Positions 12,058 through 41,470 of a stretch of 42,111 nt of DNA are shown here, piece after piece. The translations under genes and the position numbers were made by a program. This DNA is from a virus. The DNA lies in IMG/VR virus record IMGVR_UViG_3300017763_000044, positions 1-42,111 of that record, one strand, 5' to 3'. Each line of letters begins with the position of its first letter. Position 1 is the stretch's first letter. A model generated the notes under the pieces. The model saw only the letters and a list, made by a program, of their open reading frames with translations. It was not told the DNA's origin and made no database searches.

Positions 12058-12086
12058 AATGTAGTTAGTGTTACGCTAATCGTCAA
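12058..12086 (-). promoter_or_regulatory. Late promoter A (before 557-aa fibre)
   Basis: On the minus strand: -35 TTGACG (12081-12086), 17-nt spacer, -10 TACATT (12058-12063). The spacer contains GTAACAC (12068-12074), 4 nt from the -10. A second GTAACA lies next to the start codon, 11 nt after the first, as in promoter B. The predicted +1 falls on or next to the ATG at 12052, so the mRNA would be leaderless. Assigned by eye. Confidence 0.6.
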
Positions 12087-12090
12087 CTAC

Positions 12091-12861
12091 TCAAGCGCTC
12101 TCAAGTGTTGTCAGTCTCTCCAATATACCGGCAATAGTCGCGTTTGTTTCTAAATTTGTGATATTGGATCCATCTACAGCAGGTATTTTAGCTGATGCAT
12201 CTAGCTGAAGTACATTACTTGCAGAGGTTCCTACATTTTTGCTAGATGATGTTCCTAGTCCTGAAATAGTATTTTCGTTAACTGCTACCCTTGCGGTTAG
12301 ATTGGTTATTTCTATCTCCACTCCAGTGGGTCCTGTGGATGCAAATCCTGCTTGAAAGTCTGCGAGCGTACCGAGTGAACTGTTATTAGCGATGGTTCCC
12401 AGCTTAATGTCACTTACAGCGAGTGGTGCCAACTCTGCCCCGATCCCTACTTGGAATCTATCGCTTGTTTCATTAAACTCTAGCTTTGCCTCCTCTGCGC
12501 CCTGCTTGCGCTCAAAAACAAAACCTGAGTTGCTTGCTTCTGTCGTGAGTTGATTTGCGCCTTTATTCAGGCGAATGATATTGTCGGCTATATCAAGGTT
12601 ACTTGAGTTTACTGTGGTGGTCGTGCCCTCAACCGAAAGATCACCATGGAGAGTCGTTGTGCCATAAACATTTAATGTTTGGTTTTTTGCTGATGTTCCC
12701 ACGGTCAACCCAACTGCATTCGCTTCTTCGGCGTCAGTTCCAATATCTACACCTTTTTTAAATGTGTTTTTCTCAGTCCATGTATTTACCGCACCTTTAA
12801 GTGTTGTTATTAAGTGTTCGATTCTAGAAAGAACCGCCTGACCTATCTTAAAATCATTCAT
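12091..12861 (-). CDS. Tail fibre protein (256 aa)
   Basis: A 256-residue fibre protein. Residues 1-30 form an amphipathic helix. Residues about 65-105 hold the GDLSVEGTTTTVNS...LDIADNIIRLNKG signature common in phage fibre and baseplate-wedge proteins (beta-prism stalk unit). The rest is Ser/Thr/Asn-rich, with a C-terminal NATIAGILERLTTLES coiled coil. It lies 2 nt downstream of the 783-residue fibre gene and is the last gene of that unit; promoter A follows within 38 nt. It may be a fibre shaft subunit or connector. The fold class is well supported, the exact role is not. Confidence 0.8.
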   Translation of the reverse strand: MNDFKIGQAVLSRIEHLITTLKGAVNTWTEKNTFKKGVDIGTDAEEANAVGLTVGTSAKNQTLNVYGTTTLHGDLSVEGTTTTVNSSNLDIADNIIRLNKGANQLTTEASNSGFVFERKQGAEEAKLEFNETSDRFQVGIGAELAPLAVSDIKLGTIANNSSLGTLADFQAGFASTGPTGVEIEITNLTARVAVNENTISGLGTSSSKNVGTSASNVLQLDASAKIPAVDGSNITNLETNATIAGILERLTTLESA

Positions 12862-12863
12862 GG

Positions 12864-15215
12864 TTATCTTGCTATTGTTGCGTCATTAATTTGTGAACCC
12901 ACTTTTTTAAAAGAAGTATCTAAAAACAAATCGTTGTTTGTGGTGGTGTCTATAGATGTATGAAAAGTGACATAACTTTGCCCTGCATTTATGGCTATTT
13001 CCCACAATTGGTCACGCCCCCCAATCCAATCTATTAGCGTCCCGCCAAGATCGTATATCTGCGCGTTTCCGTTGCTTGTGTTGTATTTGTGCATCCGATA
13101 TATATTACCCTCCGTCATGCCGTTTGTAGTTTGCAGGGCAATAACCAAGGGTCTATCATTTGCAGAAAAAGTATGCAGTGCGAGAGATCCATTATTTGGC
13201 GTAGTCGGCAATTCATAGGTAGAATCTGCATAGTAGAAATCTTGCTTACGCTGGAACTCAATTTTGTTGTCACCCGAGTAATGCCTGATTCTTAACCAAG
13301 TTCCTATTGGGGCGAAGTCTTCTCCTGAATTATAGCCAGTTGTATATATTGTGCCATTCTCTAATATGTTTAAGGTAAATTCGCTTGGTGAAGGAACGCT
13401 GAATCCATCATCAGTGTATGTAACTCCAATTGCTACATGCCCAGTTCCTCCGTATTGAAACTGAAAGTATCCGTCTTGACCTCCGGGTATAGATTCTACT
13501 GATGATGCCCCTGCATTGAATACAGCAGTACCTCCTATCTTTGTAATAGAGTTTCCACTAACTTCCATTTGACCGCCTGCTATTGAGCCTTGCGTAAGTG
13601 ATACGCTTTCAATCTCTCTAGTGCCGTGCATTGTGTGAATCTTTAAGGCTACTAAAACTTTATTACTTGGAACGGTAACAGTTGCAGTGTTCGATACTGC
13701 GTTGTCTAAGATAACAGCCTCCGAGCTGTCATTGTACACAAAAGTGGCTTTAGTCTCACCACTCGTCTGCACGACAGGGCGATTTATTGTAACCGTAAGC
13801 GTGGTGTCCGCGGGAATAGGTAAGGCAAAAGTTTGCTGTATTACCAACTGATTTTTTCCATCAATAGTTCCATTAGCAAGTTTAGATTCATCAATCTCCC
13901 CTGAGATTACACTCCAATTATCTGGTTGTGCTTGCACAAATTCCCAGTCTACGCCTCGCACTCTTCCAAAGTTGCCCCTGTCTTCATGGTCGAGCCAAAA
14001 CCCACTAGTTCCAGTAATCGCAATATGAACCCTATCCCCTGTGCCATTGATGTTATCAATTACATACAATTCATCTAATGAAAGACTTCCTTGGGTTGCT
14101 AAGGATTGGGTTAATATTTGCACTTTCCTGTCCAATGAATTGTCATTGGTGAAGGTAGAAAAGTCGTACATATTTGGAGCAAGTCCGTAATTTAAGGAGA
14201 CTCGCTCTGTTTGGTTTGTTGCTTGAGCTGTGCTTGAGAAAAATATATCTGTTTGAGAGGTTGAACTTTTGGTTGCAGTTGAGTCCGTCTCGTTCTCCGT
14301 GTAAAGAGCTATTGTTTCACTATCTCCAGTACCGTCATCGTAGAGCAATATCTCACCCACATCGTTTGACCCAAATTGCACTGACAGAAAATGTGTGCCA
14401 GCTGTATTATAATAATCAAACGCGAAATTTCCATTAACAACACCTATTTGATCGTAAACATTGTCATTAGGAGTGTATTCGGTTTGCGATGTCCCGTCAT
14501 CCACGGTGATTGACGTTACTTTATAATATCCAAGCGTGTCTAGTGTTTTATTAAAAGTAACGGACACATACGGGGATTGCAGTGACTCCTCCAAGCTGAA
14601 GCTAGAGGCTAGTTCCCAAGTTGTATTTTCCTCGTCAGCCTTGAATGTGCCGGTTCCACTCCAAAGGTAGTTGCCCGCAGTTCCGTTGTTCCCCCCGCCC
14701 GTTATTCCAGTCACTTGAGCAAAATCTCCTGGGCTCAATCCTTTATTTGAATGGTCCGTTAACATTACAAACCGAGTACCTATCGGATAAGTACCTGCAA
14801 CCGAAGTCTCCCTGGACCACCTGTATCCACCACCTGCAGTAATGTTGAGCAATGTTATAAAATCTCCGACTTGCGTAGTTACGCCGCCATTTTCCCAACT
14901 GCTGGTCACACGCCTTACATCACCCGAGTTAATTGTATCATCGTCAAATGAAGCATTTAAAAGCTTTTCACCGCTCACGCCGATTTCGGAAATGTTAGTC
15001 CACGTAACTGGAGATGAGGTAAGGGAGGGTGGAGTTTGCGTTCCGCCGCCACCTTCAAGTAAAGCCATTCTATTGTTCAAAGCAAGTATTGCTCCGGACA
15101 CCTGTTGATCAACTAATTGATTAAGTTCAACTTTAGTTGCAAATAAATTCGCAGTTCCGATACTGTCCCTAACGCTGATCCCCGCATTGTAAAGAATTGA
15201 GTTTGTATCTGGCAT
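12864..15215 (-). CDS. Large tail fibre / adhesin (783 aa)
   Basis: A 783-residue protein with a short N-terminal helical anchor (about 1-55, ending in a coiled coil before GGGG), then a long Thr/Ser/Asn/Gly-rich beta region. Residues about 114-203 contain a VGDFITLL...GDFAQVTGI...WELA pattern that recurs in the 319-residue adhesin (22586-23545). Jelly-roll-like or lectin-like segments fill the rest, with no enzymatic motif seen. Promoter C lies directly upstream, with -10 ending 6 nt before the ATG and no Shine-Dalgarno, so this gene opens its own unit together with the 256-residue gene. Probably a receptor- or glycan-binding fibre. Confidence 0.82.
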   Translation of the reverse strand: MPDTNSILYNAGISVRDSIGTANLFATKVELNQLVDQQVSGAILALNNRMALLEGGGGTQTPPSLTSSPVTWTNISEIGVSGEKLLNASFDDDTINSGDVRRVTSSWENGGVTTQVGDFITLLNITAGGGYRWSRETSVAGTYPIGTRFVMLTDHSNKGLSPGDFAQVTGITGGGNNGTAGNYLWSGTGTFKADEENTTWELASSFSLEESLQSPYVSVTFNKTLDTLGYYKVTSITVDDGTSQTEYTPNDNVYDQIGVVNGNFAFDYYNTAGTHFLSVQFGSNDVGEILLYDDGTGDSETIALYTENETDSTATKSSTSQTDIFFSSTAQATNQTERVSLNYGLAPNMYDFSTFTNDNSLDRKVQILTQSLATQGSLSLDELYVIDNINGTGDRVHIAITGTSGFWLDHEDRGNFGRVRGVDWEFVQAQPDNWSVISGEIDESKLANGTIDGKNQLVIQQTFALPIPADTTLTVTINRPVVQTSGETKATFVYNDSSEAVILDNAVSNTATVTVPSNKVLVALKIHTMHGTREIESVSLTQGSIAGGQMEVSGNSITKIGGTAVFNAGASSVESIPGGQDGYFQFQYGGTGHVAIGVTYTDDGFSVPSPSEFTLNILENGTIYTTGYNSGEDFAPIGTWLRIRHYSGDNKIEFQRKQDFYYADSTYELPTTPNNGSLALHTFSANDRPLVIALQTTNGMTEGNIYRMHKYNTSNGNAQIYDLGGTLIDWIGGRDQLWEIAINAGQSYVTFHTSIDTTTNNDLFLDTSFKKVGSQINDATIAR

Positions 15216-15221
15216 AAGTAA

Positions 15222-15250
15222 ATATAATTATAGTGTTACTAAGAAGGCAA
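15222..15250 (-). promoter_or_regulatory. Late promoter C (before 783-aa fibre)
   Basis: On the minus strand: -35 TTGCCT (15245-15250), 17-nt spacer, -10 TTATAT (15222-15227). GTAACAC lies in the spacer at 15233-15239, 5 nt from the -10. An overlapping alternative -10 is TATAAT at 15227-15232. The predicted +1 coincides with the A of the ATG at 15215. The -35 is inside the end of the upstream gene. Confidence 0.55.
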
Positions 15251-15838
15251 TTTGAAAAGAGCTTGCACGAACCTATTGCTCACCATGGAAATAAAGGTTT
15301 CCGAGCTTGATGGATCATCTACTCCTACACCAACCCACTGATCAAATTCATACCCGCTGTCAGGTGTAGCCGTAATTGTAACATTTGTGTTAATATTGTA
15401 TTTTTCGGTACCTCCCTGTGCTGTGGTTTGCGTTCCTGTTTTTGCGACCGACCCATTAGCTCCCGCAGTAGCAATTAGAGCGCACTGTTCTATGCCGTCA
15501 CTCATGCCCGCCAAGAAGTTTTCATACGCAACTAGTTCTTCTGCTTTTGCTATTGCTGCATTGTATATAATTCCCAAAACAACAGAGTCATATTGCGTCG
15601 GTATAACTGTACCTGCGTGTACCAGGCTTCCGCGCATTTCCGGATTAATTAGCCCCGATCCTGACAAATAGCTTAATTCTGACCACCTACTCCTTCCGTC
15701 GCCAAACTTAATCATCTCTACCGTAGTGTCCCAGCCTGGCTCTGAAGCTAAAAGTATAGGGTCATTAGACTCCCACTCTTCTGTGGAGCCCTGCCTGAAG
15801 GTTAATCTTGCGGTTACAAATCTATTCGGTGCTGGCAT
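15239..15838 (-). CDS. Adhesin with Mtd-N-like head and bacterial-repeat-like C-terminus (199 aa)
   Basis: A 199-residue, two-domain protein. Residues about 8-58 match the N-terminal domain of major-tropism-determinant-type tail proteins: RLTFRQGST..EW, then LLASEPGWDTT, then IKFGDGRSRWSEL. A helical stretch follows (about 85-115). Residues about 121-196 look like the small beta domain of cell-surface bacterial repeats (VTITATPDSGYEFDQWVG, then an aromatic/hydrophobic strand ending in ALF). It lies 12 nt after the repeat fibre gene, and promoter C follows. An accessory adhesin on the fibre apparatus is likely. There is no C-type-lectin variable region, so it is not a DGR target as such. Confidence 0.8.
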   Translation of the reverse strand: MPAPNRFVTARLTFRQGSTEEWESNDPILLASEPGWDTTVEMIKFGDGRSRWSELSYLSGSGLINPEMRGSLVHAGTVIPTQYDSVVLGIIYNAAIAKAEELVAYENFLAGMSDGIEQCALIATAGANGSVAKTGTQTTAQGGTEKYNINTNVTITATPDSGYEFDQWVGVGVDDPSSSETFISMVSNRFVQALFKLPS

Positions 15839-15850
15839 CTGTATAGTTGG

Positions 15851-16369
15851 TTAAATTGAATAAAGGTTACCCCTTAGCGTTGATAATGAAACTTTGGTTG
15901 TATTGAGAGCCTCTGATGTACTTGCAAGGCTTGCACGCGTACTGTTGAGAGCCTCTGATGTACTTGCAAGGCTTGCACGCGTACTGTTGAGAGCCCCTGA
16001 TGTACTTGCAAGGCTTGCACGCGTACTGTTAAGAAGAGTCGATAAACTATTAAATTCTTCTTTGAGTAGGGATATTTCTGCAATCAATGCGTCATTGTTG
16101 GTCTGAGTAATATTTGTAACATTAGAAACTTCTTGCGTGATATTATTCTCTATATCCAATTTTTGCGTAACAATGGTTTCCGATAAGTCCGTTTTAACAT
16201 ACTTTTGCAGTTGGTCATCTAATCTGCCCAAGTTTATCCTAACCTCCTCCCACCACTCACTAAAAGTGGTGTCAAATTTTCTGGTGTCTTCGTCTTTTTT
16301 GGGCAGTGCATCGTTTTCAGGAAACGATGGTTCAACGGTACGCTCAAATGGTCTTACTTTTAATCTCAT
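15851..16369 (-). CDS. Short fibre / coiled-coil protein with tandem 14-residue repeats (172 aa)
   Basis: A 172-residue protein. The N-terminal 60 residues include FDTTFSEWWEEVRINLGRLDDQL, a Trp-rich helix probably for attachment. Residues 60-112 form a coiled coil rich in Asn, Ile and Thr. Residues about 113-156 are three copies of a 14-residue unit (LNSTRASLASTS-[EG]-A) plus a degenerate fourth. The gene overlaps the nozzle gene by 4 nt and has a Shine-Dalgarno-like AGGG just before the ATG. The adjacency suggests a fibre attached to the nozzle tip. The near-identical DNA copies imply recent expansion, so length may vary among relatives. Confidence 0.8.
   Translation of the reverse strand: MRLKVRPFERTVEPSFPENDALPKKDEDTRKFDTTFSEWWEEVRINLGRLDDQLQKYVKTDLSETIVTQKLDIENNITQEVSNVTNITQTNNDALIAEISLLKEEFNSLSTLLNSTRASLASTSGALNSTRASLASTSEALNSTRASLASTSEALNTTKVSLSTLRGNLYSI
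15903..16028. repeat. Three tandem 42-bp repeats inside the 172-aa fibre gene
   Basis: Exact period of 42 bp (15903-15944, 15945-15986, 15987-16028). Copies 1 and 2 are identical; copy 3 differs by one visible substitution (T to C near 15995). The unit is in frame (14 codons), so copy-number change only lengthens or shortens the coiled coil. Confidence 0.95.
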
Positions 16370-19044
16370 CCCTGACCTATAGATTGAGTTGTTGCCCTGG
16401 TGTTAATACCGCTAACTTCGAATGTTCTTCCAACTAACTTAATTGGGTTGTCTAGGACCACTAAGTCGCTTTGAACTGAATAGTAGCTTTCTACCTGTAC
16501 GTTGCTTTCATCTGTCCGGCTTTTTATTTCCGTATATCCTGTGTCTACATAAAATCCGCTGTCTTTTGCGTATTCGGGTAAAACGCTAATTTCGTCCCTC
16601 ATGTAGGGCGCCCTCAAATATAGAGGTATCATGTTTTCATCGCGTAACTCATTTAGTGTTACAAAGTCTTGAGTTATACCGTTTAATGTGCTCATAGTCT
16701 CAACATTTTCAGTGCCCTGTGGTGCTGTTGTTGTACTAATCCTAACCCGTATTGGAGTTACTCCATACTTACTGGACAGTTCTAAAACATAGGATCGCAC
16801 TTCTTTATCAGAAAAACTATTACCAAAATCTATAAGACCACTTCTGATTTTAGATATGTAACCATAACCCAATCTGTTGTATATTCTGTAGGGTTCAGTT
16901 TCTCCGTACAGAGGAGGTCCATAACCATAGCGAACAATTGCTCCTCCGTATTTGGGATCCTCTCTCCACTGCGAACCAATGTACATAGAGGATTCATCTT
17001 CTGCTTGATGGACTCCCATTATGAACCACATTTGCTCAGGGCCAACTCTATTGCTCTTAGGCTTTCTTATCGTAGTGCAGGAAGTAAATGATGCATCTAT
17101 TTGTGAAAGTGTATTATTGATATAATCGTATGCTATCACGCCCCAATCGAGCACGGGTTGACCAACCATATTACCATTCTCATTCGTGGCTATTGGTTGA
17201 TTAAGGTCATCTATTAGTTGCCCTTGCGTGTTCTTTTTATAGCCTAGCGGGCAATTAATAAATATTTCCCTGGTGACTGGATTATCTACAGTGTAAACAT
17301 ACTCGGATAATTCTGGTGGCACCATTTGCCAAAATGGTGGTCCAAGCTCAAAGGTATCTACGGGTTTTGGCTCTACTGAGGAACGATTAATATTATAAAC
17401 TCCCGTGTTGCCCATAAACAAATGCATATTTCCTGAAACCTGTATAATCGTATTTCTGAAGTCTGCGTTTCTTCCGCCCGTATATCTCGGGTCTACGGCA
17501 TAGGGCTGGATTGTGCTATTTGATCGTGTGAGAAAGAAAAACCCTGAATCTCGGTAAACAACCAATTTGTCCGCCAATTCTTTCATCTTTAGAATGCGCG
17601 TACCGTCCTGTACAAACTCTTGGAATGCGGCAGGCTTTCTTATCTGCTCGGCGAACGGCCTGAGCACCATCGGGTAAGTTCCCTCAGGCAGTTCCGTTCC
17701 GCTCGTTGGATCCAAAAGCTTGATGTCATCCTCGTCTTTATCTACAAATCTTAAAGTTTTATTTGCCTCAACTTTGAAGAATATACCACTTGTTGAGATC
17801 ATGCTTATCATTTGCGCCAGCACTTCTGATTCCGTAAACCCTCCGTTTTCTTCCTCTGCATTGCCGGAAAATCTAGTGGGAAATTTAACCCCAAGGGCTT
17901 TTACTGCATCTACCTTTCGCGCAAAATCAAAGTCTTCATTGTCATACTTTATTGCACCAATGGTGTCTAGGAATATCCCTACATGGTCGACGCCTGAGTG
18001 AATGCCATACTTGTACTTCTGGAACATACTACCATCAGTATCTATCGCAAAGTTTTTAGTGTATGTCATCTTGTAGGAACCATCAGCTCCAATCGTAAGC
18101 GTGCCCTCTAAACCTCCTGATTCTGCGATAACTACATTGTTGGCTTCTATGCCTGTATTAAAGAGCTTTGGGTCACCCTCCGAGCTATAAATCATCCTGT
18201 ACTGGTAGCGTTGTATTTGCACATCTCCTTCAGCGTAGAGAGTGGATGCGGTTATTGTTCCGTATGGGTCACTCTCCCCAAACCATTCGTCATACCCAGC
18301 ACTTATCATTGTGAGGTCTCCGCAGAATAACCTGTCTTGGAAGTTTGATATAGTTCCCACGGATACTACACCATTTTCCCGTAAGCCATAAAGTGGATAA
18401 GCTTGATCGTATTCACTTTTGTAAACAATCGGTAAATCGACCCCGTTGTTAATTATTAAATGGTTTTGTATTTCTGCAAATTCCCATCTGTATGCGCCAC
18501 CCTCAAATGGATCCTTTAAGGTTCCGTCGGACTCCTTGGCATCCATGTGATTAGTAAATGTGTAGATCAACTCCCAAATAAAATCATCTGCTTCGTTTTC
18601 AAAATAGTCAGGGTCAAAAGTTAATGTTTCAGGAGCGTCTTGACCGTCTTCGGTTGCATACTCCTCAACGGGGTTTGCGTTCAATAAGTCTGTGCCATAA
18701 TCAATCGCAAATCTTTTGTCGCCCGTGCTTAACCTATATACTTTTGCTCCTGCTATCGCAATGAGAACGGGAGTTCCATCTGTTCCCGTAAACTGATGCA
18801 AACCGCGAATCGGCTCTGCACTATTAAGGGCATCATCTGAGCCTGATGGATTAAATATATCCCAACCTTCCCTTCTGAGTTCTCCATCCACCTCTCTTCT
18901 AAAGTTTATTTTTTCTGTATAATTTGCCGATGAAGTAAGGAAGTTTTTCTCGTCAGATATAGGAACATCATCAGATGCAGACCCAATCAAGGCTCCACCC
19001 TGAGAGGGGTGTATGGTAATATGCTTATACCTTTTCCTCGCCAT
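16366..19044 (-). CDS. Tail nozzle protein (T7 gp12 / tail tubular protein B-like)
   Basis: An 892-residue protein reading from ATG 19044, which overlaps the stop of the upstream fibre gene by 1 nt (TAATG). Alternative starts further upstream would extend into that gene by five codons only. The N-terminus (INFRREVDGELRREGWD...IRGLHQF...LIAIAGAKVYRL) is typical of podovirus nozzle proteins, which begin with a short-strand platform followed by a beta-propeller. Large, aromatic-rich beta segments follow, and residues about 500-700 (GNMHLFMGNTGVYNI) look propeller-like. Length is near the upper end for the family. With the adaptor at 21137-21904 it would form the short tail conduit through which DNA leaves. 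Confidence 0.85.
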   Translation of the reverse strand: MARKRYKHITIHPSQGGALIGSASDDVPISDEKNFLTSSANYTEKINFRREVDGELRREGWDIFNPSGSDDALNSAEPIRGLHQFTGTDGTPVLIAIAGAKVYRLSTGDKRFAIDYGTDLLNANPVEEYATEDGQDAPETLTFDPDYFENEADDFIWELIYTFTNHMDAKESDGTLKDPFEGGAYRWEFAEIQNHLIINNGVDLPIVYKSEYDQAYPLYGLRENGVVSVGTISNFQDRLFCGDLTMISAGYDEWFGESDPYGTITASTLYAEGDVQIQRYQYRMIYSSEGDPKLFNTGIEANNVVIAESGGLEGTLTIGADGSYKMTYTKNFAIDTDGSMFQKYKYGIHSGVDHVGIFLDTIGAIKYDNEDFDFARKVDAVKALGVKFPTRFSGNAEEENGGFTESEVLAQMISMISTSGIFFKVEANKTLRFVDKDEDDIKLLDPTSGTELPEGTYPMVLRPFAEQIRKPAAFQEFVQDGTRILKMKELADKLVVYRDSGFFFLTRSNSTIQPYAVDPRYTGGRNADFRNTIIQVSGNMHLFMGNTGVYNINRSSVEPKPVDTFELGPPFWQMVPPELSEYVYTVDNPVTREIFINCPLGYKKNTQGQLIDDLNQPIATNENGNMVGQPVLDWGVIAYDYINNTLSQIDASFTSCTTIRKPKSNRVGPEQMWFIMGVHQAEDESSMYIGSQWREDPKYGGAIVRYGYGPPLYGETEPYRIYNRLGYGYISKIRSGLIDFGNSFSDKEVRSYVLELSSKYGVTPIRVRISTTTAPQGTENVETMSTLNGITQDFVTLNELRDENMIPLYLRAPYMRDEISVLPEYAKDSGFYVDTGYTEIKSRTDESNVQVESYYSVQSDLVVLDNPIKLVGRTFEVSGINTRATTQSIGQG

Positions 19045-22365: not shown

Positions 22366-22373
22366 CCTGTTAC

Positions 22374-22403
22374 AGTATAATAAGTGTTACGCTAGGTGTC
22401 CAA
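22374..22403 (-). promoter_or_regulatory. Late promoter B (before holin-like gene)
   Basis: On the minus strand: -35 TGGACA (22397-22402, 17-nt spacer) or TTGGAC (22398-22403, 18-nt), and -10 TATACT (22374-22379). TAGCGTAACAC sits in the spacer (heptamer 22384-22390, 4 nt from the -10), with a second GTAACA 11 nt later. This matches promoter A nearly base for base over about 30 nt. The -10 ends 8 nt before the ATG at 22365. Confidence 0.6.
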
Positions 22404-22583: not shown

Positions 22584-22585
22584 GG

Positions 22586-27492: not shown

Positions 27493-27514
27493 AATATTAT
27501 AGATTAGTTGTTAT

Positions 27515-27543
27515 TGATAAATTCGTGTTACAACTAATAATAG
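27515..27543 (-). promoter_or_regulatory. Late promoter D (before capsid gene), weak -35
   Basis: On the minus strand: GTAACAC (27525-27531) lies 4 nt from a possible -10 TTATCA (27515-27520). The -35 position at 17-nt spacing reads CTATTA (27538-27543), which is poor. A second TATAAT (27496-27501) ends 3 nt before the ATG. The heptamer plus GAATTTAT context is shared with promoter G. A weak -35 would suit activator dependence. Confidence 0.45.
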
Positions 27544-27547
27544 CATG

Positions 27548-31289: not shown

Positions 31290-31290
31290 T

Positions 31291-31548: not shown

Positions 31549-31579
31549 TGTAATTGATGCAGAAGTAGCATACTGTGAA

Positions 31580-31831: not shown

Positions 31832-31836
31832 TCCGT

Positions 31837-31865
31837 AACTTATGTTTTCGTGTTAACAAAATCAA
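31837..31865 (-). promoter_or_regulatory. Late promoter E (before acidic/portal unit)
   Basis: On the minus strand: -35 TTGATT (31860-31865), 17-nt spacer, -10 TAAGTT (31837-31842). The related heptamer TTAACAC (31850-31856) is in the spacer, here 7 nt from the -10. The -10 ends 5 nt before the ATG at 31831. The -35 overlaps the TerL stop codon region. Confidence 0.5.
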
Positions 31866-34585: not shown

Positions 34586-34622
34586 GTTTTTAAAACATAA
34601 AACCCATTCATGGATAAGCAAC

Positions 34623-34651
34623 ACTTAATTTCGTGTTAATATGATGTGTGC
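34623..34651 (-). promoter_or_regulatory. Late promoter F (before packaging unit), weak -35
   Basis: On the minus strand: heptamer TTAACAC (34633-34639) lies 4 nt from a -10 TTAAGT (34623-34628). At 17-nt spacing the -35 reads GCACAC (34646-34651), which is poor. The 11-bp tandem array starts only 7 bp upstream of that -35, so activation by an array-bound factor is a natural hypothesis. Confidence 0.45.
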
Positions 34652-34658
34652 CTGTGTG

Positions 34659-34775
34659 CACCTTGGTAACACCTTCGTAACACCTTGGTAGCACCTTCGC
34701 CGATAGCTCGCCGATAGCTCGCCGATAGCTCGCCGATAGCTCGGCGATAGTTGGGCGATTACGAGCGATCACGAG
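34659..34775. repeat. Two abutting 11-bp tandem arrays (iteron-like)
   Basis: Array 1: four units CACCTTSGTAR, exact 11-bp period (34659-34669, 34670-34680, 34681-34691, then CACCTTCG with a changed end at 34692-34702), with GG and CG alternating inside the unit. Array 2: five units of CGATAGCTCGC type at 11-bp period (34701-34755; the last two diverge), then two 10-bp units CGATTACGAG and CGATCACGAG (34756-34775). The end runs into the last codons of the integrase. An 11-bp period puts every unit on nearly the same DNA face. Confidence 0.95.
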
Positions 34776-35762: not shown

Positions 35763-35776
35763 ACAGAACGATATTT

Positions 35777-35806: not shown

Positions 35807-35817
35807 AAAATCAATAT

Positions 35818-35846
35818 AAAAAAACACCCCCCATTCCTGAGAGGTG
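35818..35846 (-). terminator. Rho-independent terminator upstream of integrase
   Basis: On the minus strand, CACCTCT pairs with GGGGGTG (35825-35846, with G-T wobbles), followed by seven T (35818-35824). It would stop transcripts from the regulator operon and, after integration, from the tRNA, before they enter the integrase gene. Confidence 0.7.
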
Positions 35847-35853
35847 CTTATTT

Positions 35854-35868
35854 AGCGGGATTCCCGCT
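35854..35868. other. Short perfect hairpin beside attP core
   Basis: AGCGGG/CCCGCT with a 3-nt loop (35854-35868), between the tRNA 3' end and the terminator. Not followed by a T-run in the leftward direction. It may aid termination or tRNA 3' processing in a lysogen. Confidence 0.5.
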
Positions 35869-35877
35869 TAAAAACTA

Positions 35878-35930
<53 letters not shown>

Positions 35931-35952
35931 ACAATCGCCTTATAACTGAGCC

Positions 35953-36276
35953 TTAGGGCTCTGTCGGCAATCTGTTGGCGTCCTCATACTCTTCGTATGT
36001 ATTTTTTGCCCTGACCCCAGGTCGTACATCGATCATGTATCGAAGCCTGCTAATTGTTTCATCCAGCACTGCGGTGTTTGCGTAAAGCATACCGCATGCA
36101 ACTAAGCTCGTTATAAGTGACATTATGCTTAATAAGCATGCAATCAACAATAGGCTGTGACCAGAGCTAACCGCCCTACCGTCGATTCTTATGTTCTTAA
36201 TGTCGCCTTTTTCGACATCCGGTATCTCCAGCGTTACTTGATTGCCATTTTCATATGTTATCTGAGTTGGGGTCAT
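35953..36276 (-). CDS. Single-TM membrane protein (107 aa)
   Basis: A 107-residue protein. Residues 1-38 are polar (beta-like, VTLEIPDVEKGDIKNIRIDG). Residues about 40-67 form one strongly hydrophobic helix (SLLLIACLLSIMSLITSLVACGMLY). Residues 68-107 are charged. It lies 2 nt after the ribbon-helix-helix regulator gene and ends beside attP. Located in the lysogeny region and probably expressed with the regulator, it could be a superinfection-exclusion or other lysogenic conversion protein. That is only positional inference. The 3' end overlaps an arm-type repeat (35960-35980). Confidence 0.7.
   Translation of the reverse strand: MTPTQITYENGNQVTLEIPDVEKGDIKNIRIDGRAVSSGHSLLLIACLLSIMSLITSLVACGMLYANTAVLDETISRLRYMIDVRPGVRAKNTYEEYEDANRLPTEP
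35960..35980. repeat. Arm-type repeat pair, right side of attP
   Basis: TCTGTCGGCAA (35960-35970) followed by the degenerate TCTGTTGGCG (35971-35980). Same orientation as the copies at 35739-35762. It lies within the end of the membrane-protein gene. Confidence 0.7.
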
Positions 36277-36278
36277 TC

Positions 36279-36512
36279 TTACTCTTTCCTTTCTTTCCTT
36301 TCTAGCTCAAGAGCAAACTTATCTACTATCAAGGTTTTGCTTTGAGTGTAGTTGATTTCAGTACATTGGGCGATGTACTCTCTAATTGCGGTTGTAACAA
36401 ATGCAGCCACGGATTTTTGCGTTACTTCTGTTAATTGATGTACCTCCTCGTAAATACTTTTAGGGATTCTGCAGTTTACTGCAACGAGTGTTTCTTTGGC
36501 AGGGTTATTCAT
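36279..36512 (-). CDS. Ribbon-helix-helix transcription regulator (77 aa)
   Basis: A 77-residue Arc/CopG-type protein. A beta strand (TLVAVNCRIP, about 8-17) is followed by helix A (KSIYEEVHQLTEVTQ) and helix B (SVAAFVTTAIREYIAQ), then a helical basic tail. Such proteins dimerise and insert the paired strands into the major groove. It is divergent from the excisionase-like gene at 36640, with a 127-nt shared control region. A directly repeated ATCATAA (10-bp spacing) lies 18 nt before its start, a typical operator for this fold. It may be the lysogeny/early-gene switch regulator; no CI-like repressor is visible. Confidence 0.83.
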   Translation of the reverse strand: MNNPAKETLVAVNCRIPKSIYEEVHQLTEVTQKSVAAFVTTAIREYIAQCTEINYTQSKTLIVDKFALELERKERKE

Positions 36513-36639
36513 TTTTAATATGCTTATTTATCATAACTCATCATAATACACCACTTATGTCAAGTTAATGACAATAACTATTTTTTGTTTGTTTACAACT
36601 TATACTTTCTTTTTATTGCAAATGCACTAAAGTCTTGGA
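36513..36639. promoter_or_regulatory. Divergent control region, RHH regulator / early operon
   Basis: An AT-rich 127-nt gap. It holds ATCATAA direct repeats (36530-36536, 36540-36546), a candidate RHH operator. A possible leftward promoter is TTAACT, 17 nt, TATGAT (36540-36568). A rightward -10 TAAAGT (36628-36633) ends 6 nt before the ATG at 36640, with a weak -35. It is probably the lysis-lysogeny switch. Confidence 0.5.
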
Positions 36640-36885
36640 ATGGCAAAAAGAGAAACAGAAAATTGTATTGTGATAAAGAAAGGGGAAGCTAGTAGATTGC
36701 TAGGCTTCGGGGCTACCGCAGGGTACGCTTACTTGAATTATCTGGAAGAGGAAAAGATAATTTTCCCTGTCCTGTTACCGGGAATAAAAACACCGCGATA
36801 TCGAAAAGAGGAGATTTTAGCTCTTGCCGAAAACAAGGACCCCGAGAAATACGCTGAAGTTAGCACATTTAAAACCAATAACTAA
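36640..36885 (+). CDS. Excisionase / MerR-like HTH protein (81 aa)
   Basis: An 81-residue protein with a winged-helix, excisionase-type pattern: KKGEASRLLGFGATAGYAYLNYLEEEKIIFPVLLPGIKTPRYRKEEILALAEN (about 14-66). The first helix-turn-helix is followed by a hairpin wing and a final helix. Proteins of this kind direct integrase toward excision or activate early genes. It is the first rightward gene, divergent from the RHH regulator. The predicted +1 lies on its ATG, and no Shine-Dalgarno is present. Its stop is 4 nt before the next start, so it is likely co-transcribed with the recombination genes. Confidence 0.75.
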   Translation: MAKRETENCIVIKKGEASRLLGFGATAGYAYLNYLEEEKIIFPVLLPGIKTPRYRKEEILALAENKDPEKYAEVSTFKTNN

Positions 36886-36889
36886 AAAT

Positions 36890-37513
36890 ATGAAAATACG
36901 AGGTAAGGAATACATGGAAGTGAAGGATCGAGTTATGGTCTTTCGCAAAAACCACCCCGAGTGGGCATTAATAACGCAAATCGTGGAAAACAACGAGTCA
37001 ACAGGTTCGGTGGTTTTCAAGGTAATCATCGAGGACGAAAACGGAAGAATCCGAGGAACAGGTCATGCCCATGAGTTTAAGGATGATAAAACCTCAATGG
37101 TTAACAAAACTTCGCATCTAGAGAATTGCGAAACTTCTGCTATTGGTAGGGCTTTGGCTTCTTTAGGAATAGGCATTGAATCTTCTTACGCTACCTATGA
37201 TGAGGTCCTTATCGCAAAGGACAAGGAGACTAGATCGACTGAAGAAAGAAAGATAGTCAAAGAAGGCTCGATCAAGCAATCAAATGCCACACCTGAGGTA
37301 GGTAAAACTGCGGTAAACTTAGGTAAGAATTACGATATGGAGTGGCCAGGAAAAAAGAAACATTCAGGTAAAACAATTAGATGGATTGCCGAGAATGACC
37401 TCGACTACCTAAAGAAGAGCTTGAATGAAAATGCGGAACAACTTGAATCCGTTGGAGTTTTAGATGCGGTAAAATATTTTGTTGGTAAATCGGATTTCCC
37501 TGAGGCAAAATAA
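36890..37513 (+). CDS. Probable ssDNA-annealing / recombination protein (207 aa)
   Basis: Read from ATG 36890, because the preserved N-terminus in this protein type is IKGKEYxEVxxRVxxFR; an upstream start would overlap the preceding gene. The conserved core comprises RVMVFRKNHPEW, SVVFKVIIEDENGRIRGTGHAHE and the family-typical INKTSHxENCETSAIGRALASLGIGI (here VNKTSHLENCETSAIGRAL, about 70-90). The C-terminus (about 125-205) looks like a separate basic region with a W-P-G-K-K motif. I recall this family next to phage exonucleases, consistent with an ERF/Rad52-like role in strand annealing, but the function is not certain. It is followed (1-nt overlap) by the exonuclease. Confidence 0.7.
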   Translation: MKIRGKEYMEVKDRVMVFRKNHPEWALITQIVENNESTGSVVFKVIIEDENGRIRGTGHAHEFKDDKTSMVNKTSHLENCETSAIGRALASLGIGIESSYATYDEVLIAKDKETRSTEERKIVKEGSIKQSNATPEVGKTAVNLGKNYDMEWPGKKKHSGKTIRWIAENDLDYLKKSLNENAEQLESVGVLDAVKYFVGKSDFPEAK

Positions 37514-38211
37514 TGGATCGACCCAAGGAAGTTGATGCAAAACTTTCTGCTTCCAAGATGGAGGCGGCGAGTCGTTGCTCTGCATACTTTCAGGCGAATC
37601 ATAAGTTTGCTTGGAAGGGTGACAGGGATTCCGCTTCGGAAGGTACGATTCGCCACGACCATGAGGAGAATCAAACCCCATTGGATGAGATTGATGATGA
37701 TGAGCGCAGAAAATGCGCTTATCGTTGTCGGGAAGCTTTGAATGAAATTAGGGAAAAGGTTTCAAAGGCAACGGGATGCGAAGGCGAACTTGCTGAGCGT
37801 GAAATAAGACTTTGGTATGGGGGCTCTTGGAGTGGTCAACTAGATTATGTTGAGCGTTTTGGGGTAGACGTACTTGTAGCTGACTACAAGACGCTTCATG
37901 GCTCCCATACCCCTGCCCCGACAAACATTCAGCTATTGGCGCAGGCGGTACTAATGAAGCATAATTACCCCGATACAAATAATGTATACGCATGTCTGAT
38001 TGAGCCTTTCAATGACCCAACCTACACGACGGTCATGTACCCATCAGAATACTTGCTGGAGAAAGCAAAGTGGTTGGAGGAAGTCGTAGAAAATAGCTAC
38101 GCAAAGAATCCCGAGCGAGTGTTCGGGTCAAAACAATGCAAGTGGTGCTCAGCACTTTATGTCTGCCCTGAGGCAAGGTCACACTTGATTTCGTGTTTAA
38201 ATAAAAAATAG
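37513..38211 (+). CDS. RecB/Cas4-type exonuclease (DUF2800-like), 232 aa
   Basis: A 232-residue PD-(D/E)XK nuclease. Motifs: EGTIRHDHEE (His near 51), GQLDYVERFGVDVLVADYKT (about 111-130, the metal-binding D...D-x-K), then QLLAQAVLM (about 143-151). Four Cys likely hold an Fe-S cluster: one in SRCSAY near residue 22, and QCKWCSALYVC near the C-terminus (C-x2-C-x5-C). That is the AddB/Cas4 arrangement. It probably resects DNA ends to feed the annealing protein encoded just upstream. The C-terminal tail expected of DUF2800 proteins is absent from this product and appears in the next gene. The start overlaps the upstream stop by 1 nt (TAATG). Confidence 0.88.
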   Translation: MDRPKEVDAKLSASKMEAASRCSAYFQANHKFAWKGDRDSASEGTIRHDHEENQTPLDEIDDDERRKCAYRCREALNEIREKVSKATGCEGELAEREIRLWYGGSWSGQLDYVERFGVDVLVADYKTLHGSHTPAPTNIQLLAQAVLMKHNYPDTNNVYACLIEPFNDPTYTTVMYPSEYLLEKAKWLEEVVENSYAKNPERVFGSKQCKWCSALYVCPEARSHLISCLNKK

Positions 38212-38219
38212 GAGGATGT

Positions 38220-38606
38220 ATGGATTGGATGAATAAAGAGGAAGACCTCGCGGGGGCAATGGAGTTAGTTCCCATTATGGAGGCTTTCATAAAGCAGGTT
38301 AAAGCGGTAGTTAAAGAAAAGCTACTTGAAAACCCTGAGGCGGTGCCAGGATTTAAGCTAAGAAAAAGCGGGAACATAACTGCTTACGAAGCTTCAAAGG
38401 TGGCGGAGATATTAATGTCAACTAATGTGCTGACTTGGAATGATTTCCTTGGTGCATGTAGGTACTCAGAAAGCCCTATGGTGCAGATTTGGGCAGACAA
38501 GCGAGGGATCAGTAAGGCTGAAGCCCGAAAGGACCTAAAGGAAAGGTTAAACGAATGTGCAAACACTCGACCAAAGTCACCCGCAATAATTAAAGATAAT
38601 GGATGA
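38220..38606 (+). CDS. Exonuclease-associated protein, DUF2800-C-terminus-like (128 aa)
   Basis: A 128-residue protein with a strong Shine-Dalgarno (GGAGG) 4 nt before ATG 38220, so its independent translation is well supported. Residues about 6-66 (EDLAGAMELVPIMEAFIKQVKAV...VPGFKLRKSGNITAYEASKVAEIL) resemble the C-terminal helical region of DUF2800-type phage nucleases, which there reads I-x(10)-KAVE-x(8)-PGYKLVxGRSNRKW. The C-terminus (about 85-125) is basic and helical. It is probably an obligate partner of the preceding nuclease in a two-gene version of the enzyme. Alternatively it has become a DNA-binding accessory. The gap between the two genes is 8 nt. Confidence 0.75.
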   Translation: MDWMNKEEDLAGAMELVPIMEAFIKQVKAVVKEKLLENPEAVPGFKLRKSGNITAYEASKVAEILMSTNVLTWNDFLGACRYSESPMVQIWADKRGISKAEARKDLKERLNECANTRPKSPAIIKDNG

Positions 38607-39150
38607 ATTAAAGGTCAGCATTAAGCTTAAGGGTAAAGCGAAGAACACCATACTTTGGCTATGCGAGGAGCTAGATATGCAACCCGCGGGAGTGGTCAGA
38701 ATGTGTGTTTCAGATAAAATTACAAGTATGCTTGGGTGTCCCCCTAGTGTCACCGTAGGGACACCAAGTACTATCACGGAAGAAGAACCCTCAGTGTCAC
38801 CGGAGGGACACCCACCTCGCGCACGCACACGGGTAACTAAGGATTTATCGTTAGATAAATCTAACTCGTCCAAGGACGCGAGTAGGGATTTTTTCAAATC
38901 ATTTATCGGGAAGATCGAATACAAGAAATTTCCCGAGCGAGTTTCCAAGGAAATAAAAAATCAATGGGAATCAATATTAGAGTCAAAACTGACACCAGCA
39001 GAAATGGCAGAGGCGTACAATCAGTATGTTACCGACTCGAAAGCAAACAACGATAAATTCAGCCACCCCAATTCTTGGATCGCGGGGCACGGTTGGGCAA
39101 ACAAAGAAATGGAGGATAGGGATGAACCACGAGGCAATTATGATTTCTGA
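38599..39150 (+). CDS. Probable helicase loader / replication initiator (183 aa)
   Basis: A 183-residue protein directly before DnaB. Residues 1-46 are a small helical domain (TILWLCEELDMQPAGVVRMCVSDKI), possibly DNA-binding. Residues 47-95 form a Pro/Ser/Thr/Glu linker, encoded by the origin-like repeats. Residues 96-183 are helical and end HPNSWIAGHGWANKEMED, reminiscent of the C-terminal part of phage replisome organisers (...P.SWI...GW). This two-domain layout with repeats in the linker is that of lambda gpO. The gene overlaps the previous one by 8 nt and dnaB by 29 nt. Loader identity is inferred from context. Confidence 0.7.
   Translation: MDELKVSIKLKGKAKNTILWLCEELDMQPAGVVRMCVSDKITSMLGCPPSVTVGTPSTITEEEPSVSPEGHPPRARTRVTKDLSLDKSNSSKDASRDFFKSFIGKIEYKKFPERVSKEIKNQWESILESKLTPAEMAEAYNQYVTDSKANNDKFSHPNSWIAGHGWANKEMEDRDEPRGNYDF
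38735..38861. other. Candidate replication origin inside the loader gene
   Basis: Two 19-bp imperfect palindromes, GTGTCACCGTAGGGACACC (38747-38765) and the same with one substitution (38794-38812), 47 bp apart. A further GGTGTCCC half-site (38735-38742) forms an 8-bp inverted repeat with the first copy. A GC-rich stretch follows, then an AT-rich segment with a perfect 8-bp inverted repeat GATTTATC/GATAAATC around a 4-nt loop (38842-38861). Repeats inside the initiator gene followed by an AT-rich region is the lambda ori layout. Confidence 0.6.
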
Positions 39151-40510
39151 TTACGACGCAGAGCGATCGCTATGCGGATGTCTTCAGTATGACGAGAAGG
39201 TAGGATATATTGTCTTCGCTTACGCTATTGAGCGAGGACTAACAAATGAATTTTTCAGCGAACCTGAGTTTCAGGCTTTTTGGCAAGCTTTGCTTTGCTC
39301 AGAGAAAGAGGGAGAGTTTGGGTTATTTGGAGCCATGGACAGGCTACCAAAAGATTTCACTCAATCCTATCCCTCATTCATGGAGGGTATTTGTCAGGCA
39401 CATGACATTGTGACTGAAGACAGGGGGAAGAAGGCGGTAGATGAAGTAATTAAAAGACACCACTTCCGCAAGCTTACTGCAATCGCGTCAAACCTAATCA
39501 ATGAAGTCAAGGATGCCGAGATACTAGCTGACCCAATTCAGTTGGCTAACGATACCGAGAAGTCTCTGCAGGATATAATTAAACCTACAAGCTCAACCTT
39601 GCAGGATTCAAATAACCTTACTGATTCAACGATTAACTCGATCAAGAGAACACTAACTCAGGGACCAGCAAGAATTGAACCTCACCTTCCTTGGTTGAAG
39701 TGGGGACTGAATGGAGGGTTTAAGGATAATCACCTTGTTGTGGTGGCGGCTCGCCCTTCCGTTGGTAAGACGACAATCGTATTGAACTTCGTTTACAATG
39801 CGGCACTTCAGGGTAAGAAAACACTGTTCTTTTCACTCGAAATGAAATCGGAATCCCTGTGGGAAAAGCTTGGTTTAATTCGATCAGAGAATGACGAGGG
39901 ATTGCCCTATAAAACAAATGACGATGCGAGAAACAAGGAGAACGCTAGAGACCTCATCGAGTACATTGAGCAATGCCGACAACTACCTATCTACATAGAT
40001 GATTTTGCTGGTTCTAGCATGAGCAACATTAGAACCACATCAAGGATTCTTCACCGCAAGGAAGGGCTTGATTGCATTGTTATTGATTACCTTGGTTTGG
40101 TAAAGCCTGATGACCCAAAGGTAAGCCGAGAGCAACAAGTTGCCGAGATTAGTAGATCAGCAAAACAATTAGCCAAGGAGTTAAATATTCCGGTATTCCT
40201 TATTTGCCAACTCAATCGAGCTTCAGTTCAACGAGGATCGGAACCGCAACTCCATGACCTTAGAGAGTCAGGACAAATAGAACAGGACGCTGATGTGGTT
40301 ATCCTGCTCCACAGAGAGTTGCTTGGGGACGACAAAGAGGATGTCAGGGTTATTGTGGCAAAGAACAGATTTGGGGGGTGCGGAAACTCATTAAAGAGAA
40401 TCAAGTTCAAGCCGAAATCTCAAAGATTTATTCAGGTAGAAGACAATAGGCTCAATGAAGGTCATAGAGAAGTTAAAGGTCTCTACAACACAGAGGAGGA
40501 TAGAATATGA
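39122..40510 (+). CDS. dnaB: Replicative DNA helicase, DnaB-type (462 aa)
   Basis: Read from ATG 39122, which has GGAGG 6 nt upstream; the open frame reaches further back but those codons lie in the loader gene. Residues about 7-150 are the helical N-terminal domain (ISDYDAERSLCGCLQYDEK...). The RecA-like C-terminal domain has Walker A RPSVGKT (211-217), catalytic Glu240 (SLEMK), Walker B IVIDYLG (319-325), sensor QLNR (363-366) and the DnaB loop LRESGQIEQDAD (380-391) ahead of an arginine finger. Length and order are standard. It should unwind the fork at the origin next door, loaded by the product just upstream. No primase fusion. Confidence 0.95.
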   Translation: MNHEAIMISDYDAERSLCGCLQYDEKVGYIVFAYAIERGLTNEFFSEPEFQAFWQALLCSEKEGEFGLFGAMDRLPKDFTQSYPSFMEGICQAHDIVTEDRGKKAVDEVIKRHHFRKLTAIASNLINEVKDAEILADPIQLANDTEKSLQDIIKPTSSTLQDSNNLTDSTINSIKRTLTQGPARIEPHLPWLKWGLNGGFKDNHLVVVAARPSVGKTTIVLNFVYNAALQGKKTLFFSLEMKSESLWEKLGLIRSENDEGLPYKTNDDARNKENARDLIEYIEQCRQLPIYIDDFAGSSMSNIRTTSRILHRKEGLDCIVIDYLGLVKPDDPKVSREQQVAEISRSAKQLAKELNIPVFLICQLNRASVQRGSEPQLHDLRESGQIEQDADVVILLHRELLGDDKEDVRVIVAKNRFGGCGNSLKRIKFKPKSQRFIQVEDNRLNEGHREVKGLYNTEEDRI

Positions 40511-40821
40511 TACATGAAAACAGTAGATCGTCGTACGACGATTTAAAGCCCGAGCTAGGTGGCAGGCAGAAGCAGATATACATGACTATGCTTAACCACA
40601 TGCCCGTAGCTACCGACAGGGAGATAAAAGATAAGATGGGGCTGAGTGACATGAACTCAGTAAGACCAAGAATAACCGAACTCATAAAGTCAGGTCACCT
40701 AGAGGAAACCGATAGCACCAAATGTCCAGTAACCAATAAGACGGTCAGGAAAGTTAGGATCGTTAACTGCCCAAGGAATGGACCGATATGGACGATTGGC
40801 GACCAAATGAACCTTTTTTAA
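40507..40821 (+). CDS. Winged-helix DNA-binding protein (104 aa)
   Basis: A 104-residue protein with a winged helix at about residues 18-75 (GRQKQIYMTMLNHMPVATDREIKDKMGLSDMNSVRPRITELIKSGHLEE). A Cys/Lys-rich wing and a C-terminal NGPIWTIGDQMNLF follow. The pattern, helix-HTH-[wing with N-x-T-x-R-x-V], is shared by many small phage proteins that follow helicase genes. ATGA overlap with dnaB suggests co-translation. It may regulate late or replication genes, or bind the origin. It is a reasonable candidate for the factor that recognises the late promoter heptamer, though nothing in the sequence proves this. Confidence 0.75.
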   Translation: MIHENSRSSYDDLKPELGGRQKQIYMTMLNHMPVATDREIKDKMGLSDMNSVRPRITELIKSGHLEETDSTKCPVTNKTVRKVRIVNCPRNGPIWTIGDQMNLF

Positions 40822-40846
40822 CTAACAACAAAAAATCAAATAAAAT
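40818..40846 (+). promoter_or_regulatory. Promoter for ssb
   Basis: TTAACT (40818-40823), 17-nt spacer, TAAAAT (40841-40846) ending 6 nt before ATG 40853. The predicted +1 falls on the ATG. No Shine-Dalgarno is visible in the AT-rich gap. No GTAACAC heptamer is present, so this belongs to a different promoter set. Confidence 0.5.
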
Positions 40847-40852
40847 ACGAAT

Positions 40853-41194
40853 ATGAATGGTAAAATGTTATTCTATGGAAATGTAACGCTCGTGGCAGAT
40901 GCCGAAGAGGTAAAGGTTGGGGATAAAACCCTAGTCAAATTCAGGGGGGCTTGGAATGAAAAGCGTAAAGGTGAAAGCCTGGCGTCTTTTGCAAACTTTG
41001 AGTCCTGGTCAGAGTACAAAAACGAACACATCATGAAGTTCTTCAAGAAAGGCAAGAATGTTCATGTCCGCGGTAGTATGTCGGAAGACACCTACGAAGA
41101 CAAGGATGGCAAAAAGGTTCGCACCTATCGTTATCGCTTGGATGACTTCGATCTCCTCGACAACCGGAAATCCAATGAAGACACCGATTTTTGA
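40853..41194 (+). CDS. ssb: Single-stranded DNA-binding protein (113 aa)
   Basis: A 113-residue OB-fold protein. The strand-loop pattern GNVTLVADAEEVKVGDKTLVKFRGAWNEKRKG, ASFANFESWSEYKNEHIMKFFKKGKNVHVRG and YRYRLDDFDLL matches the SSB core (about 8-98). It ends in an acidic NEDTDF tail comparable to the DDDIPF tip of bacterial SSBs, which recruits partners. It protects single strands at the fork and may bind the exonuclease and annealing proteins. It is transcribed from its own promoter and is convergent with the minus-strand gene whose stop lies 2 nt away. Confidence 0.88.
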   Translation: MNGKMLFYGNVTLVADAEEVKVGDKTLVKFRGAWNEKRKGESLASFANFESWSEYKNEHIMKFFKKGKNVHVRGSMSEDTYEDKDGKKVRTYRYRLDDFDLLDNRKSNEDTDF

Positions 41195-41196
41195 TG

Positions 41197-41433
41197 TCAT
41201 TCGCGGACTTTTTCGTTTCTGCTTTTTTCTACCCAGAGGGGTGCGCACTTTGTGGCGCACTCTTCTGGTGTGGGGTCGTGTTTCTCGGATATACCATGAG
41301 TCGGGGGCCAAGGGCTTGAGGCATTGGAAGAGTGTACGTGGGGTATCGAAGGGTAACCTTCGTCCAAAATCTTCGCAAGAGTCAAATAGTAGTCGAACTC
41401 CTCCTCACCGATAAGATGATTGACACCACTCAT
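41197..41433 (-). CDS. Small unknown protein on the opposite strand (78 aa)
   Basis: Read from ATG 41433, 8 nt after the -10 of promoter G; an ATG four codons earlier (41445) overlaps that -10 and is unlikely. The 78 residues include IGEEEFDYYLTLAKILDEG at the N-terminus, then a His/Pro/Cys-rich part (HVHSSNASSPWPPTHG...PEECATKCAPLW) that could bind metal. The gene is flanked by plus-strand genes on both sides and convergent with ssb. Its promoter has the late heptamer, so it is likely a late gene in an otherwise early arm. The competing plus-strand frame (41175-41411) starts inside ssb, has no promoter and reads as low-complexity basic sequence. Confidence 0.6.
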   Translation of the reverse strand: MSGVNHLIGEEEFDYYLTLAKILDEGYPSIPHVHSSNASSPWPPTHGISEKHDPTPEECATKCAPLWVEKSRNEKVRE

Positions 41434-41441
41434 TGAGTAAC

Positions 41442-41470
41442 ACATAAATTCGTGTGACGGATGTGGGCAA
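41442..41470 (-). promoter_or_regulatory. Late-type promoter G (before 78-aa gene)
   Basis: On the minus strand: -35 TTGCCC (41465-41470), 17-nt spacer, -10 TTATGT (41442-41447). GTCACAC (41452-41458) lies in the spacer, 4 nt from the -10 and followed by GAAT as in promoter D. An inverted GTAACAC (41437-41443, plus strand) faces it. It overlaps the control region of the rightward HNH operon. Confidence 0.55.

What the first reader, a model, noticed from the sequence alone, without database searches (positions are those of the whole stretch)
12058..41470. Candidate late regulon: seven minus-strand promoters with a GTAACAC-type heptamer in the spacer
A heptamer, GTAACAC (or GTCACAC, TTAACAC), lies between -10 and -35 at 12058-12086, 15222-15250, 22374-22403, 27515-27543, 31837-31865, 34623-34651 and 41442-41470. 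In five of the seven it is exactly 4 nt from the -10 (5 nt in C, 7 in E). These sites stand ahead of the first gene of each structural unit: packaging, portal, capsid, holin-like/adaptor, 783-aa fibre, 557-aa fibre. The seventh precedes the lone minus-strand gene at 41.2-41.4 kb. Promoters A and B share almost 30 nt including a second GTAACA 11 nt on. A phage regulator, activator or repressor, that reads the heptamer would coordinate the late genes; the winged-helix or RHH protein is a candidate. The heptamer alone is not significant: it also occurs by chance in coding DNA. The placement is the signal.
Basis: partly seen in the sequence, partly recalled or inferred. Interest (0 to 1): 0.75.

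Follow-up and report, generated by a model that had tools for sequence, protein, structure and literature searches.

The report
Dispersed paired operators of marine phages
Seven switch-like DNA sites in front of the virus-particle genes of an uncultured marine phage are real: each is a pair of GTNAC boxes exactly 17 base pairs apart, conserved in many relatives, and most likely the docking site of one phage protein that blocks these genes until they are needed.

Summary
The heptamer is the left half of a 22-bp dyad, GTNAC-N12-GTNAC, present (with up to two mismatches) in all seven sites. A matrix trained only on relatives ranks exactly these seven places, plus one coding place, as the best in the window (score >=16: 0.08 expected per shuffled window). 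In 33 non-redundant loci, intergenic GTNAC pairs occur 38 times at gap 12 and 0-2 times at every other gap. An assumption-free dyad search finds the same element (10^-22). Inner half-site letters differ by phage clade, symmetrically on both sides. That points to a dimeric, phage-specific DNA-binding protein. At sites A, B, C and in many relatives the element sits on the -10 of a sigma70-type promoter whose start falls at or near the ATG. At the capsid gene it lies just downstream of a conserved extended -10. Both positions overlap RNA polymerase, which favours a repressor over an activator. The reader protein is unproven; the ribbon-helix-helix protein at 36279-36512 is the leading candidate. 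Closest analogues: mycobacteriophage Cluster K extended start-associated sequences, Cluster O dyads, Cluster A stoperators.

The parts
12053..12074 (-). Site A: GTAACACTAACTACATTGTAAC, 0 nt before the ATG of the 557-aa fibre gene (start 12052); -35 TTGACG (12081-12086), -10 TACATT (12058-12063) inside the element
   Evidence: G008 and L027 genes of cluster 15, whose first residues resemble this fibre's, also carry the element
15218..15239 (-). Site B: GTAACACTATAATTATATTTAC, 2 nt before the 783-aa fibre gene (start 15215); -35 TTGCCT
   Evidence: no relative of this fibre found
22369..22390 (-). Site C: GTAACACTTATTATACTGTAAC, 3 nt before the 154-aa gene (start 22365); TTGGAC-N18-TATACT
   Evidence: orthologues L118 and L129 have TTGGAC-N18-TATAAT with the -10 at element positions 12-17
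27510..27531 (-). Site D: GTAACACGAATTTATCAATAAC, 17 nt before the 629-aa capsid-like gene (start 27492)
   Evidence: 22 of 25 clustered genomes or loci with the gene carry the element
27537..27545 (-). Extended -10 TGC-TATTAT of the capsid-like gene, 5 nt upstream of site D
   Evidence: TGnTA nearly invariant in 13 aligned leaders; TAnnnT kept in further clades
31835..31856 (-). Site E: TTAACACGAAAACATAAGTTAC, 3 nt before the 83-aa ORF (start 31831) that follows terL; TTGATT-N17-TAAGTT
   Evidence: conserved in most terL relatives
34618..34639 (-). Site F: TTAACACGAAATTAAGTGTTGC, 32 nt before the likely start (34585) of the first gene of the packaging unit
   Evidence: same element with 32-nt spacing in G007 and C46; absent in L003
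41437..41458 (-). Site G: GTCACACGAATTTATGTGTTAC, near-perfect dyad, 3 nt before the likely start (41433) of a small minus-strand gene
   Evidence: orthologous gene and element in G007 (5494-5515, 3 nt before its gene)
5870..5891 (.). Eighth high-scoring dyad GTAACACCTTCGTTAGTGTTAC inside the 1097-aa ORF
   Evidence: function unknown
36279..36512 (-). Ribbon-helix-helix (CopG/Arc-type) protein, candidate reader
   Evidence: below-cutoff RHH_1 matches and helix layout; conserved integrase-side switch locus
36640..36885 (+). MerR/excisionase-like wHTH, divergent from the RHH gene; alternative reader

Best explanation
The seven sites are operators for one dimeric (or twice-dimeric) phage-encoded DNA-binding protein that reads two GTNAC-centred half-sites 17 bp apart. 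Each operator overlaps a sigma70-type promoter: on the -10 at A, B, C and in many relatives, just downstream of an extended -10 at the capsid gene. Binding would keep RNA polymerase off these promoters, silencing the structural genes and some others, most plausibly in the prophage or early in infection. Release of the protein would switch the transcription units on together. Many of the resulting mRNAs would start at or within a few bases of the ATG. Shown: the element, its fixed geometry, conservation, placement and clade-specific symmetric half-sites. Supported statistically: the promoters at the ATG. Inferred: protein binding, repression, timing and the identity of the protein.
For: Gap-12 pairs 38 versus 0-2 at other gaps; 57 segments with at most one mismatch versus a shuffled mean of 6.6. 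Matrix from relatives recovers exactly the seven sites plus one. De novo dyad search: log10 p -22 in the window's clade, -11.5 in a second clade. Clade-specific inner letters change symmetrically: positions 6/17 are complementary in 39 of 75 versus 21 expected, 8/15 in 42 versus 29. In some relatives the E-site is inverted relative to its gene. -35/-10 pairs with a predicted start within -3 to +6 of the ATG in 20 of 48 elements versus 6.4 (max 15) with shuffled upstream DNA; -35-like words at -15 to -10 in 11 of 54 versus 2.1. Perfect TATAAT inside the element in site-C orthologues L118 and L129. TGnTA nearly invariant just upstream of the capsid copy. Integrase present, so probably temperate. 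Variable operator position with constant overlap of RNA polymerase is the usual repressor pattern (general knowledge).
Against: No regulator is proved. The RHH/HTH divergent region lacks the element, so autoregulation of the best candidate is not seen. Strong copies avoid the replication operon, which a lysogeny repressor would be expected to silence unless it uses another site there. TAnnnT words inside the elements are no commoner on the coding strand than on the other (26 versus 31), so the -10 evidence rests on the -35 spacing and the site-C orthologues. No transcription data exist; the host is unknown.
Confidence: 0.6

Rival explanations
1. The element is the binding site of a phage activator that recruits RNA polymerase to late promoters, one of the reader's two options.
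For: The genes served are mainly late; -35 words are imperfect at several sites (TTGCCT, TTGGAC); early replication genes mostly lack strong copies.
Against: At the capsid gene the element lies downstream of an extended -10 conserved across clades, where an activator would hardly work; at site C the -10 can be a perfect TATAAT. Position relative to the promoter is not fixed.
Confidence: 0.17
2. The element is itself the promoter of a phage-encoded polymerase or sigma factor.
For: Very close, nearly fixed placement before start codons; G002 encodes a small sigma70 region 4 protein.
Against: Symmetric, occurs in either orientation; a separate -35 lies upstream; Pfam found no polymerase domain in the giant protein; the sigma-4 protein was found only in G002.
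Confidence: 0.08
3. The element works in mRNA as a hairpin (processing, stability or translation control).
For: Capsid leaders fold strongly one by one (z down to -6).
Against: Other elements do not fold (mean z -0.2) and the central pair 3/20 is hardly complementary beyond chance (32 versus 28.6); no consensus beyond the five-pair core in the capsid alignment.
Confidence: 0.06
4. Sites for a recombinase, partition or other DNA-structural system.
For: Seven-base arms around an eight-base centre resemble tyrosine-recombinase core sites; two integrase families occur in several genomes.
Against: Central bases differ between copies of one genome, which would block recombination between them; tight link to start codons and promoters.
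Confidence: 0.04

Closest known systems
Cluster K mycobacteriophage extended start-associated sequences (ESAS)
   Same: Imperfect inverted repeats just upstream of many start codons, left half closer to consensus, consensus differing by subcluster, function unknown (PMC3203893)
   Different: 17-bp arms with a variable spacer (mostly 4-13 bp) and an adjacent GGGATAGGAGCCC box; here short GTNAC-centred half-sites at a fixed gap of 12, no such box, unrelated phages
Cluster O mycobacteriophage 17-bp dyads
   Same: Many copies of a palindrome spread over the genome, function unknown; some promoters of these phages predicted leaderless (PMC4351075)
   Different: TGTTCGG-N3-CCGAACA, over 30 copies, not closely linked to start codons
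Cluster A (L5) stoperators and Rep repressor
   Same: 20-30 dispersed sites for one repressor in a temperate phage, with clade-specific motifs (PMC6550527)
   Different: 13-bp asymmetric sites oriented with transcription, mostly not at promoters; Rep acts by blocking elongation
Phage P1 C1 and P22 Arc/Mnt operators
   Same: Phage repressor with operators that overlap promoters; Arc and Mnt are RHH proteins (from memory)
   Different: Different sequences and spacing (from memory); not tested here

Membership tests
sigma70-type promoter | -35 TTGACA-like and -10 TATAAT-like hexamers 16-19 bp apart | tested here: met
   A, B, C and several relatives; site-C orthologues TTGGAC-N18-TATAAT; weak for F
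sigma70-type promoter | RNA 5' end at the predicted base | not testable with these tools
   no expression data
Cluster A stoperator system | asymmetric 13-bp site oriented with transcription | tested here: not met
   symmetric dyad, inverted at the E-site of some relatives
Cluster A stoperator system | many dispersed copies with clade-specific motif | tested here: met
Cluster K ESAS | paired 17-bp inverted repeats next to an SAS box | tested here: not met
   consensus has only GTNAC-centred half-sites and no SAS-like box
RNA hairpin element | conserved base pairing in all copies | tested here: not met
RHH (CopG/Arc) repressor as reader | RHH fold in the candidate protein | tested here: inconclusive
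   RHH_1 E 0.025 (window) and 0.00069 (L009), both below the curated cut-off; helix layout fits; Foldseek weak
RHH (CopG/Arc) repressor as reader | binds GTNAC-N12-GTNAC | not testable with these tools
   beta-strand residues differ between clades along with the half-sites, a correlation only
RHH (CopG/Arc) repressor as reader | operator at its own promoter (autoregulation, usual but not obligatory) | tested here: not met
   no GTNAC pair in the RHH/HTH intergenic region of the window or six relatives

The most novel reading that the evidence does not exclude
One small RHH repressor, whose DNA-reading strand changes together with the inner letters of its half-sites, silences near-leaderless structural promoters genome-wide in a family of uncultured temperate marine phages: an immunity system with paired self-palindromic GTNAC boxes at 17-bp spacing.
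Probability: 0.25. Interest if true: 0.68.

Novelty: new variant of a known kind. Interest (0 to 1): 0.52.

Why it matters
It gives a testable regulatory code for a marine phage family without cultured members in the collection searched, marks its transcription units and likely start sites, and adds a lineage far from mycobacteriophages with dispersed start-linked dyads, whose function is an open question there too. The clade-specific half-sites predict which phages share immunity.

Tried and rejected
Heptamer alone: also in coding DNA, not informative. Hairpin for all copies: rejected. XRE repressor (PF01381): found only in G019. HTH-like protein of the packaging unit (cluster 8): its presumed helix varies among phages with the same motif. 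N4-like virion RNA polymerase in the giant 3-4 kaa protein: Pfam found only a polyvalent-protein kinase domain. -10 word by itself: no strand bias. Fibre genes: no relatives for the 783-aa protein and one weak local match for the 557-aa one. Host: no cultured phage relative for the capsid-like protein, only 24-29% identical terminases; the two MAG contigs labelled archaeon come from a bin with several related virus contigs and no bacterial-model rRNA hit, so the label was not used. Rfam: no match in the window. One paper search was malformed.

Full report
What was checked. Extending the comparison showed that each heptamer is the left half of a 22-bp element, GTNAC-N12-GTNAC.

Is it more than chance? 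Three tests say yes. (1) In 270 intergenic stretches ending at gene starts from 33 non-redundant loci (556 kb), exact GTNAC pairs occur 38 times at gap 12 and 0-2 times at any other gap from 4 to 27; 36 segments hold an exact pair against 0.2 in shuffles. (2) A matrix built only from relatives of the window's clade, without the window or its closest relative L003, ranks exactly the seven sites and one coding place (5870-5891) at the top of the window; scores of 16 or more are expected 0.08 times per shuffled window. (3) A search over all tetramer pairs with no motif given finds ACAC-N11-TAAC as the best dyad of the window's clade (19 observed, 0.59 expected, log10 p -22) and GTAA-N14-TAAC in a second clade (13 versus 0.8); nothing comparable in four further groups.

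The phage. The window is a linear 42-kb virus record with terminase, portal-like protein, integrase, DnaB-type helicase and nuclease genes. The capsid-like protein has no match among 50,697 phage records and the terminase only distant ones; close relatives are environmental contigs. The host is unknown. Most genes lack an evident Shine-Dalgarno sequence.

Anatomy. In 54 non-redundant copies within 12 nt of a start codon, information is concentrated in the two pentamers; the 12 bases between are AT-rich. Elements end 0, 2, 3, 17, 3, 32 and 3 nt before the likely starts of A-G. The 32-nt spacing of F recurs in G007 and C46 (positions, with in-frame starts by analogy). Inner letters are clade-specific and symmetric: GTNACAC...GTGTNAC in the window's clade, GTTACTA...TAGTAAC in G002 and relatives, GTAACCTA...TAGGTTAC in G010/G011/G014. 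Complementarity of positions 6/17 and 8/15 exceeds what column composition gives (39 versus 21; 42 versus 29 of 75), but the central 3/20 hardly does. That is what a two-fold symmetric protein would select, not an RNA stem. At the E-site of L038, L041 and L048 the element is flipped relative to the gene.

Relation to promoters. In 20 of 48 copies a TTG -35 and a -10 with 16-19 bp spacing place the start within -3 to +6 of the ATG, against 6.4 (max 15 in 300) when upstream DNA is shuffled. At site C the orthologues L118 and L129 have TTGGAC-N18-TATAAT with the -10 inside the element. The 154-aa gene of site C also occurs in other phages, where the element is missing, so the operator belongs to this phage family and not to the gene. 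Upstream of the capsid-like gene the layout differs: an extended -10, TGnTAnnnT, lies a few nt 5' of the element and is nearly invariant (further clades), so the element covers the presumed start site. Two different placements, both overlapping RNA polymerase, argue for repression.

Who reads it? In three element-bearing clades, and in G018/G020, the integrase side holds a conserved locus: a membrane-anchored partner, an RHH-type protein, and a divergent MerR/excisionase-like HTH protein. The presumed DNA-reading strand of the RHH protein reads AVNCRIP in the window, GISARIP in the CTA clade and IGIRVKP in the CCTA clade, changing with the half-sites. This correlation is confounded by ancestry. 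The divergent promoter region has no GTNAC pair. Profile support for the RHH fold is below curated cut-offs, the AlphaFold helix layout fits, Foldseek support is weak. The HTH model resembles BldC, MerR-type regulators and phage Xis, with weak E-values.

Which genes? In the window: packaging, the gene between terminase and portal, capsid, the 154-aa gene, two fibres and a small gene near the end. In relatives also integrases, a gene that looks like a DNA methylase by eye, and small auxiliary genes. So 'late regulon' is too narrow, although structural genes dominate in the window.

Compared with what is known. Dispersed repressor sites exist in Cluster A mycobacteriophages (PMC6550527), start-linked imperfect inverted repeats in Cluster K (PMC3203893), and dispersed dyads in Cluster O (PMC4351075). 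The present element shares the dispersal and the clade-specific consensus, but its sequence, fixed 17-bp half-site spacing and overlap with near-leaderless promoters differ. No paper describing it turned up in the five completed literature searches, which cover open-access papers only.

Verdict.

Noticed in passing
window 27493-27545 and capsid leaders of relatives: Besides the operator, most capsid leaders fold into a long hairpin (z down to -6) whose outer arm includes the -10; individual folds only, a consensus was not shown.
   Followed up: partly
L011:4081-4136: Four GTTAC boxes at an exact 17-bp period before the gene that follows terL, i.e. a doubled operator.
   Followed up: no
window 38178-38199: A weaker dyad (score 12.2, about 1.5 expected by chance) 20 nt before the gene at 38220 in the replication operon.
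   Followed up: no
window 34640-34760: Tandem repeats (GGTAACACCTTC..., GCTCGCCGATA...) at the 3' end of the integrase gene; they supply two of the plain GTAACAC hits.
   Followed up: no
G010 and G017, upstream of the integrase: What looks like a tRNA 3' end including CCA (CCAGTTCGATTCTGGGTTTCGCCACCA), a probable attachment core that could reveal the host.
   Followed up: no
L055:5955-6224: An 89-aa protein in G002 with sigma70 region 4 (Pfam E 5e-12) and no other sigma region.
   Followed up: partly
L107, L108, L109: Giant 2.8-4.1 kaa proteins; in the two scanned the only Pfam domain is a polyvalent-protein kinase in G009's.
   Followed up: partly
window 41197-41445: The small minus-strand gene most likely starts at 41433, 3 nt after site G; the listed ATG at 41445 lies inside the element.
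   Followed up: yes
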